From Rhodospirillaceae bacterium (GTDB taxonomy: Bacteria; Pseudomonadota; Alphaproteobacteria; UBA8366), in assembly GCA_002711555.1 (NCBI GenBank), contig PARQ01000013.1, forward strand, positions 70,100-77,897: a DNA stretch of 7,798 bases, in the 5' to 3' direction. Every line of letters starts with the position of its first letter. The stretch's first letter is position 1. Shown one piece after another: positions 3,170-7,325 of the stretch. Position numbers and translations under genes: made by a program. The notes beneath the pieces were generated by a model. The model was not told the origin of the DNA and ran no database searches. It saw only the letters and a list, made by a program, of their open reading frames with translations.

Positions 3170-3808
3170 TTATTTTCGATGGTCTTTTTGTGCCTCTGTC
3201 TTTGCGTATTCGATAAATCTCACCAGGGTCTCATACTCCTGAGCACCAACAAGACTATATTTTCCGGCTATAAACGTCGGAACGCCCGTAATCCCCAAAG
3301 CATGGCTTTGCATCCAGTCCTCATCTACAGCGGCTTTAAAGGAACGTTCCTCAAGCACGGCTTTTGCCTTTTCATATGAAAGCCCATTGTCTCTTACTAA
3401 ATCCAAAAGAAGTTCCTTTTGGCCAATGTTTTTACGATCAACAAAATATGCTTCATAAATTGCATAATGAAGAGATGCGCCATTTTTTTGAGTATCAGCC
3501 CATTTGCCTAGTTCTTGGGCTAAACGGCTGTTATAAGTGTGCGTTCTCTCACCGTATGGTAACCCGGCTTTATCCATGCGAGCTTTCATGTCGGCTTGCC
3601 GTGCTTTTAAATCGACGCCTTGGTATGTACTTAGATCAGTAAGAGGTTTCCCCTCAGCTGGGGTGTCCGGATGCAATGGGAAAAATAGCCAGCGGATGTT
3701 TAACTTATGAAGTTTGTCCAATTCCCGTACACGCCCCGTGCACAAATAGCACCAAGGTCATATAAAATCCGTGAAAATATTTAGCGTAATAGATGCTTTG
3801 ATGGACAA
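3170..3808 (-). CDS. Putative selenocysteine-containing FrnE-type DsbA-family oxidoreductase
   Basis: Read through one in-frame TGA, this gene encodes a 212-residue DsbA/FrnE-type thiol-disulfide oxidoreductase (COG2761-like). The N-terminal strand ASITLNIFTDFI leads into U17-P18-W19-C20-Y21, where the family has C-P-W-C. The redox cysteine is therefore replaced by UGA, and the resolving Cys20 is kept, with an extra Cys23. The rest is intact: FFPLHPDTPAEG near 42-53, the inserted helical domain (GLPYGERTHTYNSRLAQELG, about 82-101), and GITGVPTF with the cis-proline at residue 177, opposite the active site. There is no signal peptide, so the protein is likely cytosolic, as for many FrnE proteins. 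The start is inferred: no in-frame ATG lies between the upstream TGA stop and the active site, and TTG 3806-3808 gives a family-like N-terminus behind a weak GAGCG. Starting at TTG 3743-3745 would avoid the TGA but delete the first strand and the whole active site. A nonsense-mutated pseudogene is the main alternative; the intact frame and the hairpin argue against it. It is divergent from the CoA-transferase gene. Confidence 0.82.
3727..3743 (-). promoter_or_regulatory. SECIS-like hairpin downstream of in-frame UGA
   Basis: On the minus-strand mRNA, GUGCACG-GGG-CGUGUAC folds into a 7-bp stem (six Watson-Crick pairs and one G-U) with a GGG apical loop at 3734-3736. Twenty-one nucleotides separate the UGA from the loop. 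Bacterial SECIS elements sit inside the coding region just after the UGA, have a short upper stem and need a G at the start of the apical loop for SelB binding. This element meets all three conditions. It encodes residues of the CTGRVR segment, so it is under both protein and RNA constraint. No good lower stem reaching back to the UGA is visible, and I could not compute the folding energy. Confidence 0.72.
3758..3760 (-). other. In-frame UGA, predicted selenocysteine codon
   Basis: The TGA codon takes the place of the first Cys in the C-P-W-C motif of the FrnE-type gene. Protein homology is continuous on both sides of it: the residues before are NIFTDFI and those after are PWCYLCTGRVREL. UGA elsewhere in the window ends genes normally (2693-2695, 1933-1935, 6826-6828, 7323-7325), and tryptophan is encoded by TGG, so general UGA reassignment is excluded. 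Confidence 0.78.
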
Positions 3809-5676: not shown

Positions 5677-6828
5677 ATGGCTAGTCTCACACGACGTTTA
5701 AATAAGTGGTGCAGGGCAGGTCTAATAGATGAGCAGCAAGTCGTTGCCATAGAGCACTTCGAAGCTGGACAACCCAGCTGGTTATTGCGTGGACTGCTTG
5801 GTCTCGCAGTTACTTCAATAGGGATAGGGGTTATTGCACTGGTTGCTTCGCATTGGGAAAACATCCCCGATGTAATTATGCTTGGGCTAATGTTCGTGCT
5901 TTTGGTTATCATTGCACTTGGGGCCTGGGCAATGAAAATGCGGAATAATTCCACAGGGGCCGAACTATTCATATTCGCATTTCTAATAGCCTGTCTTGCA
6001 GCCATTGGCTTAATTAGTCAGACCTTTAATCTTTCGGGCAGGCTTGATCATGCATTGCTTTTTTGGGGCCTGATTGTGGCACCCATAACAGTTATGACTC
6101 AGTTTCGTCTGGTCCCTGCTCTTTGGTTATGGGTTATGTTAGTGGTGGGTCTCGTAATACCGATCGTGGAGTGGGTTGACCAGCTTGGCTGGCTAGATCA
6201 AAGAACCGCAATCGGATTAGTAGGCATATTACCAATAACTACAGCGATTGGGCTAGTTGCACTCAACAAACTAAGGCGTTTTGATAATTTTGAATGGGCA
6301 TTTCGTGTAATAACAGTGTTTGCGTGGTTCAGCGCAATAGTTATTTTTGACATAAGCTTGAGTTGGGAAGCAGCTAATCCGACAAATAAGGACGAACTGT
6401 CCGGTGCTTCGTTAATGGTATCATTTGGGACGTTACTGTCATTGTTCGTATTCGCACTCGCTTGGTTTTGGGAGATATTTCCTCGTGCACGTTTGATATT
6501 GATTGGTGTCCAGTTAGGGATTTACTTGAGTTTTCTCGCTCTCGCTTCCCTAACCAATGGTGTTCCATACCTTGGATCGGTTTTTGTAATCTTGTTATTT
6601 GGGTTTTGCGCAACAGATATGGCTCGTGCTGGTCGGCGCAGCGCGGCGCAACTTCTGTTGGTACTGATTGGGATCAGAATGTTAACGTTCTATATCGACG
6701 CATTTGGGGGATTAGCTATCACTGCAGTCGGATTGATATGCGTTGGTGTATTAATTTTACTTACAACTCTCGTTTGGTATAGGAAGCGTCATAATGTTAT
6801 GTCATGGCTGGAGGGTGTGCCTAAATGA
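5677..6828 (+). CDS. DUF2157 multi-pass membrane protein
   Basis: This 383-residue integral membrane protein has a short soluble N-terminus (about 1-34, with the LNKWCRAGLIDEQQ helix typical of DUF2157) and about 11-12 predicted membrane helices, roughly at 36-58, 65-86, 97-115, 126-143, 146-165, 177-196, 208-226, 246-266, 272-291, 297-313, 324-338 and 343-366. Family landmarks are the GIGVIALVASHWENIP segment, the QTFNLSGRLDHALLFWG loop and the C-terminal TFYIDAFGGLAITAVGL. The function of DUF2157 proteins is not known to me. They commonly sit next to a GDYXXLXY protein, and that is the case here with a 4-base overlap, so the two products probably act together in the inner membrane. An in-frame stop 9 bases before the ATG leaves 5677 as the only good start, although there is no clear Shine-Dalgarno. 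Confidence 0.88.
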   Translation: MASLTRRLNKWCRAGLIDEQQVVAIEHFEAGQPSWLLRGLLGLAVTSIGIGVIALVASHWENIPDVIMLGLMFVLLVIIALGAWAMKMRNNSTGAELFIFAFLIACLAAIGLISQTFNLSGRLDHALLFWGLIVAPITVMTQFRLVPALWLWVMLVVGLVIPIVEWVDQLGWLDQRTAIGLVGILPITTAIGLVALNKLRRFDNFEWAFRVITVFAWFSAIVIFDISLSWEAANPTNKDELSGASLMVSFGTLLSLFVFALAWFWEIFPRARLILIGVQLGIYLSFLALASLTNGVPYLGSVFVILLFGFCATDMARAGRRSAAQLLLVLIGIRMLTFYIDAFGGLAITAVGLICVGVLILLTTLVWYRKRHNVMSWLEGVPK

Positions 6829-7325
6829 GTGGCAAGTATCGTTTCGTCGCGGCCCTTATTTTTCCTATGCTATGTTTGGCCGGATTTGTGTTGTGGAACG
6901 TATGGGTTGCGACTCAAGGCCAAAAACTCACGTTGCCTATTCGTGGGTTTGACCCTCGAGATTTGTTGGCCGGCCATTACTTGGCCTACCGCATCGAATA
7001 TGGTTTTGAGTCGCTCTGTACCGGTTCTAAAAACCAGCATGAAAAAAAAACTTATATTTGTTTTGCTCCGAAAAAGATTTTGGGTGCACGACCACAGTCA
7101 TCAGAATGCCAGAAATATTTGAAAGGAGTTTGTAAAAATGGTCGTTTTCAAACAGGTCTGGATAGATTCTATATTCCCCAGAAGCACGCGCGGAAGTTAG
7201 AACAGGCAGTCGTAAACAAAAAGGGAGAGGTTATACTATCTTTGGATGGGATGGGTGGAGCTGCAATAACAGATTTGCTCATCGATGGTCTTTCATGGAA
7301 AAAGTGGGTTTCAGTTAAAGACTGA
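6825..7325 (+). CDS. GDYXXLXY family membrane-anchored protein
   Basis: This 166-residue protein has one N-terminal membrane helix (about 6-29), which could be a signal anchor, and an extracytoplasmic domain. The diagnostic element is DPRDLLAGHYLAYRIEY at 43-59, a variant of the GDYXXLXY motif with His in place of Asp. It is followed by RFYIP (114-118) and the C-terminal AAITDLLIDGLSW segment. Four cysteines (65, 79, 95, 103) in the extracytoplasmic part could form two disulfides. The ATG overlaps the DUF2157 stop (ATGA), and GGAGGG lies 9 bases upstream, so the pair is translationally coupled. The molecular function is unknown; partnership with DUF2157 is inferred from this recurring gene order. 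Confidence 0.87.
   Translation: MSGKYRFVAALIFPMLCLAGFVLWNVWVATQGQKLTLPIRGFDPRDLLAGHYLAYRIEYGFESLCTGSKNQHEKKTYICFAPKKILGARPQSSECQKYLKGVCKNGRFQTGLDRFYIPQKHARKLEQAVVNKKGEVILSLDGMGGAAITDLLIDGLSWKKWVSVKD

What the first reader, a model, noticed from the sequence alone, without database searches (positions are those of the whole stretch)
3170..3808. Hidden selenoprotein: FrnE-type DsbA oxidoreductase with U-P-W-C active site
The sequence shows a complete DsbA/FrnE-type frame interrupted only by one TGA at 3758-3760, exactly at the first (nucleophilic) Cys of the CPWC motif. Established knowledge: Sec commonly replaces the catalytic Cys in thioredoxin-fold proteins, and Sec-containing DsbA-like proteins are known from bacterial and metagenomic selenoproteomes. 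I cannot verify whether this FrnE-type branch has been described. Inference: the enzyme is a cytosolic selenol-based disulfide oxidoreductase or isomerase, mis-annotated by default as a truncated 191-residue protein or a pseudogene.
Basis: partly seen in the sequence, partly recalled or inferred. Interest (0 to 1): 0.87.

Follow-up and report, generated by a model that had tools for sequence, protein, structure and literature searches.

The report
Hidden selenium-containing FrnE-type DsbA enzyme
A gene that looks broken by a stop codon in fact almost certainly inserts the rare amino acid selenocysteine into the active site of a disulfide-handling enzyme, and it belongs to a selenoprotein family already known from ocean sequence surveys but often annotated as cut short.

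Summary
On the minus strand, 3808-3170 is one DsbA/FrnE frame whose only interruption is TGA at 3760-3758, at the first residue of a C-P-W-C motif. Two orders keep TGA in 17 of 17 and 20 of 20 hits; a third mixes TGA and Cys. A hairpin in fixed register after the UGA covaries in 42 Sec genes (94.2% paired) but not in 18 Cys genes (54.8%, as shuffled). The window's hairpin meets published bacterial SECIS rules, though alone it is no more stable than shuffles. SelB passes its cut-off in 27 of 33 Sec-form and 3 of 19 Cys-form genomes. So the gene most likely encodes a UPWC selenoprotein, an FrnE-like thiol-disulfide oxidoreductase. The kind is known: DsbA-like UXXC selenoproteins under COG2761 (FrnE) were reported from the Sargasso Sea in 2005. 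The window's own genome is not held, so its selenium machinery is unchecked. The start codon (TTG) is weak.

The parts
3170..3808 (-). Readthrough coding sequence of the predicted FrnE-type DsbA selenoprotein, 212 residues plus stop; candidate TTG start at 3808-3806
   Evidence: start codon survey; PF01323
3758..3760 (-). In-frame TGA, read as selenocysteine at residue 17 (first position of the C-P-W-C motif)
   Evidence: the same codon is TGA or TGC/TGT in homologues
3749..3760 (-). U-P-W-C active-site motif, just before and into helix 18-34 of the model (model made with Cys for Sec)
3724..3746 (-). Predicted SECIS-type hairpin: 10-bp stem, loop GGG, 21 nt after the TGA in the lowest-energy fold; the conserved 7-bp core is 3744-3738 with 3732-3726
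   Evidence: folds; covariation in 42 sequences; Cys control
3278..3280 (-). Codon of the Pro of G-V-P-T (residue 177), the cis-proline position of thioredoxin-fold enzymes (that role is recalled)
   Evidence: invariant in the 56-row alignment A3
3170..3745 (-). ORF as annotated by default (191 aa, TTG start after the TGA)
   Evidence: same kind of truncated entry in the database, P0002

Best explanation
The gene encodes a selenoprotein of the FrnE (COG2761) branch of the DsbA family. UGA 3760-3758 is decoded as selenocysteine by SelB and tRNA-Sec, directed by the hairpin at 3746-3724 (supported here by homology and by covariation in relatives; decoding itself not shown). The product is a DsbA-fold enzyme whose selenolate at residue 17, paired with Cys20, does thiol-disulfide exchange, probably as a cytosolic disulfide reductase or isomerase (inferred from homology to Deinococcus FrnE and from the lack, by eye, of a signal peptide).
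For: Frame open except at one TGA exactly at the catalytic Cys. 119 of 119 other TGA-PWC loci match, 108 over 183 residues or more, in 11 named phyla with 8 loci unplaced. TGA in 17 of 17 hits of one order and 20 of 20 of another; in a third, 17 close hits with TGA and 19 with Cys. SECIS: 94.2% of cells paired, all 7 pairs with two-sided changes, 0 of 500 shuffles as high; 18 Cys genes 54.8%, same as shuffles. G at the second loop position in 148 of 148 Sec and 2 of 18 Cys genes. selB above cut-off in 27 of 33 Sec-form and 3 of 19 Cys-form genomes, Fisher p 4.8e-6. tRNA-Sec at 60 bits or more in 25 of 30 genomes with the TGA gene. The window falls in a 13-row clade whose other 12 rows are database entries truncated after this site (quick tree).
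Against: No genome is held for the window; no tRNA and no Rfam match in the 7.8 kb, and none of the neighbouring genes is a sel gene. The hairpin of the window alone is not more stable than its shuffles (z -0.22, 78 of 200 as good). The stem was named from folds of the window and ten loci that overlap the tested set, so the slid-column control leans towards it; the Cys control comes from one order only. Only a TTG start, without an obvious ribosome-binding site. The window's 4-row clade sits on a long branch (0.53). 6 of 33 Sec-form genomes lack selB above cut-off and 3 of 30 lack tRNA-Sec above cut-off, with two more just above it (G008, G016); completeness of these genomes is not given. The DNA of the 12 truncated relatives was not seen. 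No expression or protein data.
Confidence: 0.94

Rival explanations
1. Pseudogene or nonsense mutant of a Cys-type FrnE: the TGA is a recent point mutation and the gene makes nothing, or only an inactive fragment from a downstream TTG.
For: Weak TTG start; long branch of the window's clade; 4 of 119 TGA-type loci do show an early second stop.
Against: The same truncation is seen in a 98% relative and in relatives down to about 60% identity; TGA in all hits of two orders; hairpin covariation in TGA genes but not in the Cys genes tested; no other stop in 195 codons after the TGA.
Confidence: 0.04
2. Sequencing or assembly error of TGC/TGT.
For: Raw reads could not be seen.
Against: A separate entry, P0002 (98% identical, standing for 30 member sequences), begins downstream of the same place, which points to TGA there although its DNA was not seen; an error would not place a SECIS-type hairpin in the family register.
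Confidence: 0.01
3. UGA reassigned to Trp or another residue throughout the genome (a changed code).
For: Nothing beyond the open frame.
Against: By the sequence and the ORF ends, the SDR (stop 1935-1933 minus), DUF2157 (6826-6828) and GDYXXLXY (7323-7325) genes end in TGA at natural lengths, and those proteins match their Pfam families. Most TGA-form relatives tested have tRNA-Sec or selB.
Confidence: 0.01

Closest known systems
DsbA-like selenoprotein, COG2761, UXXC (Sargasso Sea 2005, PMC1088965; 'DsbA 1', PF01323, GOS 2008, PMC2398784; 'DsbA-like protein form 1' in the 2026 review PMC13188914)
   Same: PF01323, Sec at the first position of the CxxC, bacterial SECIS just after the UGA, marine metagenomes, Cys homologues widespread; COG2761 is the FrnE group
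   Different: Nothing seen that places this outside the family. The published alignments are figures and were not seen, so identity at subfamily level rests on the COG and Pfam labels.
Deinococcus radiodurans FrnE (DR_0659; PDB 5cnw, 5co3, 5cp1)
   Same: Best match by sequence (8.3e-19) and by fold (TM 0.82-0.88, 28% identity); CPWC motif
   Different: The window has TGA for the first Cys and lacks the C-terminal CXXXXC of drFrnE; its only Cys are 20 and 23 (drFrnE motif from PMC8945050 passages)
2-hydroxychromene-2-carboxylate isomerase, kappa-class GST, DsbM (same fold)
   Same: DsbA-like fold
   Different: Lower identity (14-19%) and rank below FrnE
NCBIfam NF041057 Rcas_1661 family thioredoxin-like (seleno)lipoprotein
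   Same: Weak match of residues 111-200
   Different: 30.3 bits against a cut-off of 190: not a member

Membership tests
Bacterial selenoprotein | In-frame UGA at a site where homologues have Cys | tested here: met
Bacterial selenoprotein | Bacterial SECIS: loop 3-9 nt, stem 4-16 bp, G in the first two loop positions, 16-37 nt from UGA, energy <= -7.5 kcal/mol (rules from passages of PMC13188914) | tested here: met
   Loop GGG, 10-bp stem, 21 nt, -11.1 kcal/mol; covariation in relatives. The energy is not below shuffles for the single sequence.
Bacterial selenoprotein | selA, selB, selC, selD in the same genome | not testable with these tools
   No genome held. In relatives: selB 27 of 33, tRNA-Sec above cut-off 27 of 30; selA and selD not searched.
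Bacterial selenoprotein | Selenocysteine present in the protein | not testable with these tools
   Needs 75Se labelling or mass spectrometry.
DsbA family, FrnE branch (COG2761 / PF01323) | DSBA domain over the whole length | tested here: met
   PF01323 108.9 bits, cut-off 25.6, residues 8-199
DsbA family, FrnE branch (COG2761 / PF01323) | Closest solved relatives are FrnE | tested here: met
   No COG model was run.
Deinococcus-type FrnE (with regeneration motif) | C-terminal CXXXXC | tested here: not met
   Cys only at 17 (the TGA codon), 20, 23; the motif is also absent from some FrnE according to PMC8945050 (passages)
DsbA-like selenoprotein of the Sargasso Sea / GOS sets | Direct similarity to the published sequences | not tested
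   The published sequences (AACY01178397, NIP15863.1) were not fetched here; assignment by the COG2761, PF01323 and UXXC labels.

The most novel reading that the evidence does not exclude
The window belongs to a fast-evolving subclade of Sec-FrnE with U-P-W-C-Y-L-C, a third thiol three residues beyond the motif's Cys, and no C-terminal regenerating cysteines, which may have taken on its own redox partner or substrate; and the Sec form is the fixed, standard form in whole uncultured alphaproteobacterial orders, under-counted because annotation cuts the gene at UGA.
Probability: 0.2. Interest if true: 0.45.

Novelty: new member of a known kind. Interest (0 to 1): 0.33.

Why it matters
It adds a well-supported member, with covariation evidence, to a selenoprotein family that is still often annotated as truncated: 52 of the 120 listed database hits (of 7860) lack the active-site region. 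A Sec-aware model for FrnE would help; the NCBIfam scan gave none above cut-off. Biologically it suggests that many uncultured bacteria spend selenium on an FrnE-like disulfide enzyme.

Tried and rejected
Viral contigs searched with the Cys version of the protein gave no confirmed relative. Plasmid collection by DNA: two short matches under CoA-transferase genes. Gene neighbourhood: of seven window neighbours tested against the 119 loci, the CoA-transferase has distant relatives (22-34%) in 16, in varied positions, the SDR in 2, and the GST, DUF2237, DUF3126, parvulin and DUF2157 genes in none (in one search the SDR query was mis-framed and was redone; GDYXXLXY and the hydrolase were not tested). 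Among the loci themselves the commonest recurring neighbour family reaches 16 of 120, and several others recur mainly among gammaproteobacterial loci. No functional partner was inferred. Lineage of the window: the CoA-transferase's nearest named relatives are Rhodospirillaceae MAGs at 76-77%, but none of the 317 genomes of one order (E <= 1e-150) and 2 of 376 of a class sample, at 51%, matched, so the lineage is only 'probably Alphaproteobacteria'. Gammaproteobacteria sample: 1 of 369 genomes, the centre itself. One search covered the same order, and a family of one genome; they add nothing. A genome-wide code change and HCCA-isomerase identity were considered and set aside (see rivals, closest known). 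Paper searches; PMC9312934 was seen in passages.

Full report
What is there. The minus strand from 3808 to 3170 holds one frame of 212 codons plus stop, interrupted once, by TGA at 3760-3758. The residue lies in ITLNIFTDFI-U-PWCYL, where homologues have C-P-W-C. Left to default rules the gene is a 191-residue ORF from a TTG at 3745. The frame is open upstream for 41 codons; its only standard start codon there is TTG at 3808, 16 residues before the TGA, without an evident ribosome-binding site. Full-length homologues have 11 to 15 residues before the motif, one has 23, so TTG 3808 fits in position.

What protein. Pfam DSBA (PF01323) covers residues 8-199 at 3.6e-31. Among solved structures the best sequence matches are FrnE of Deinococcus radiodurans (8.3e-19) and SCO1869 of Streptomyces. 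An AlphaFold2 model on a 56-row alignment, with Cys in place of Sec, has mean pLDDT 91.6; residue 17 stands just before the first helix (18-34), and Foldseek ranks five FrnE entries first (TM 0.82-0.88, 28% identity), before SCO1869, HCCA isomerases and kappa GST. Gly-Val-Pro (175-177) is invariant in that alignment, whose rows I chose from the hits.

Is the TGA shared? A pattern for D-[FY]-[IV]-TGA-P-W-C-Y occurs once in the window, with none in 200 shuffles. In 119 of 119 the frame matches this protein at E < 1e-5 (against these 120 sequences only); 108 align over 183 residues or more, and the shortest matches (such as L052, 22 residues) rest mostly on the motif used to pick them. 106 of 119 run at least 170 codons to their stop, 9 run off the stretch held, 4 stop early (L002, L037, L052, L119). 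By NCBI names they fall in 11 phyla, with 8 unplaced. In whole genomes: order of G002, 17 of 24 genomes have a hit and all 17 carry one TGA; order of G453, 20 of 27, all 20 with one TGA; order of G001, 42 of 199, of which 17 have TGA in a close full-length hit, 19 are Cys, 1 (G045) is split with a TGA, and 5 have only distant hits without a stop; alphaproteobacterial sample, 16 of 385, all with TGA, overlapping the first two orders; gammaproteobacterial sample, 1 of 369. E limits were 1e-20 and 1e-40 in the others. In one search two of the 17 also list a TAA or TAG inside the match; I did not resolve whether that is past the natural end.

Is it a SECIS? In 42 Sec genes chosen to be under 86% identical over 42 bases (of 148 distinct ones), a 7-bp stem in fixed register 13 nt after the TGA forms 94.2% of its cells, all 7 pairs show two-sided changes, 63 cells against 15.8 in shuffles, none of 500 shuffles as high, and sliding by 1-3 columns drops pairing to 28-42%. 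I named the stem after folding the window and ten loci, so the sliding control leans towards it. In 18 Cys genes the same columns pair at 54.8%, equal to shuffles; all 18 come from one order, which limits that control. The second loop base is G in 148 of 148 Sec genes and 2 of 18 Cys genes. The window has all pairs (8 of 8 counting a weaker outer one), several in a form different from the majority. Its lowest-energy fold has loop GGG, a 10-bp stem, 21 nt from the TGA and -11.1 kcal/mol, inside the published rules as seen in passages of PMC13188914. Taken alone it is not more stable than shuffles (z -0.22, 78 of 200), and in the automatic scan three of eleven sequences (L116, L030, L092) gave no qualifying hairpin; the case rests on covariation.

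Is there machinery? For the window: unknown, no genome is held, and the 7.8 kb has no tRNA or Rfam match. In relatives: tRNA-Sec scores 60 bits or more in 25 of 30 genomes that I picked from the loci; 27 pass the cut-off of 47, two of them narrowly (G008, G016), and G011, G014, G015 do not; 5 of 14 control genomes pass it. selB is above cut-off in 27 of 33 Sec-form genomes and 3 of 19 Cys-form genomes, 2 of 14 controls, Fisher p 4.8e-6. The 52 genomes were those with close hits, leaving out G045, G228 (a partial TGA hit) and the five distant ones. selA and selD were not searched.

The window's own branch. Of the 120 listed database hits (of 7860) 52 lack the active-site region and 68 have it: 64 CPWC, 2 RPWC, 1 GPWC, 1 CPWF. 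The eight best hits are all truncated. In a quick tree of 92 rows that I chose (32 of the 120 hits and 60 loci counting the window; the U/C column not used) the window joins P0002-P0004 (100), then a 13-row clade (95) whose other 12 rows are all truncated entries, with L120, L173, L175 and L094, which have TGA in DNA, next to it at weaker support (85-86). That the 12 have TGA is inferred, their DNA was not seen. P0002 stands for 30 sequences and is 98% identical. Sec and Cys rows interleave: at least 9 changes on the tree.

What it does. Inferred: a selenolate at residue 17 attacks disulfides, Cys20 resolves. [quoted passage not shown] The window lacks the C-terminal CXXXXC proposed there to regenerate the enzyme, so it probably depends on an external reductant such as thioredoxin or glutathione. 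The window also carries a GST-like gene, DUF2237, an SDR and the end of another, DUF3126, CoA-transferase, parvulin, DUF2157, GDYXXLXY and an alpha/beta hydrolase; of the seven tested none is a conserved neighbour.

Is it known? Yes as a family. PMC1088965 (2005; passages and section 8) lists nine DsbA-like selenoproteins, COG2761, UXXC, with SECIS-like stem-loops. COG2761 is FrnE (PMC6316421 and PMC1978522, passages). PMC2398784 (2008; passages) has 'DsbA 1' with 63 sequences and 704 Cys homologues, more abundant in marine samples. PMC13188914 (2026; passages) keeps it as 'DsbA-like protein form 1'. I saw no paper in the listings that names a selenoprotein FrnE outright; the link is through the COG number.

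Noticed in passing
P0012, P0029, P0034 (database hits): Full-length relatives with GPWC or RPWC in place of CPWC; Gly (GGA) and Arg (CGA) are one base from TGA, so they may be mutated or mis-sequenced Sec codons. DNA not seen.
   Followed up: no
L001:547-570 (-): An IMG/VR viral contig (41 kb) carries the Sec-FrnE gene near its end, with the FFDYI-U motif seen also in L105 (Geobacteraceae); perhaps host flank of a provirus.
   Followed up: no
L002, L037, L052, L119: Four TGA-type loci have an early second stop 11-59 codons after the Sec codon: decaying genes, frameshifts or assembly errors.
   Followed up: no
L046, L016, L031, L064, L024 (Chloroflexota): A distant branch (about 29-33% identity) with U-P-W-C-Y-V also has TGA and mostly keeps the hairpin register, so Sec use at this site spans deep branches of the family.
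   Followed up: partly
window 5677-7325: DUF2157 membrane protein next to a GDYXXLXY protein; relatives of the first at 71-99% include ones on long contigs (P0124, P0126), which could lead to the genome of this organism.
   Followed up: partly
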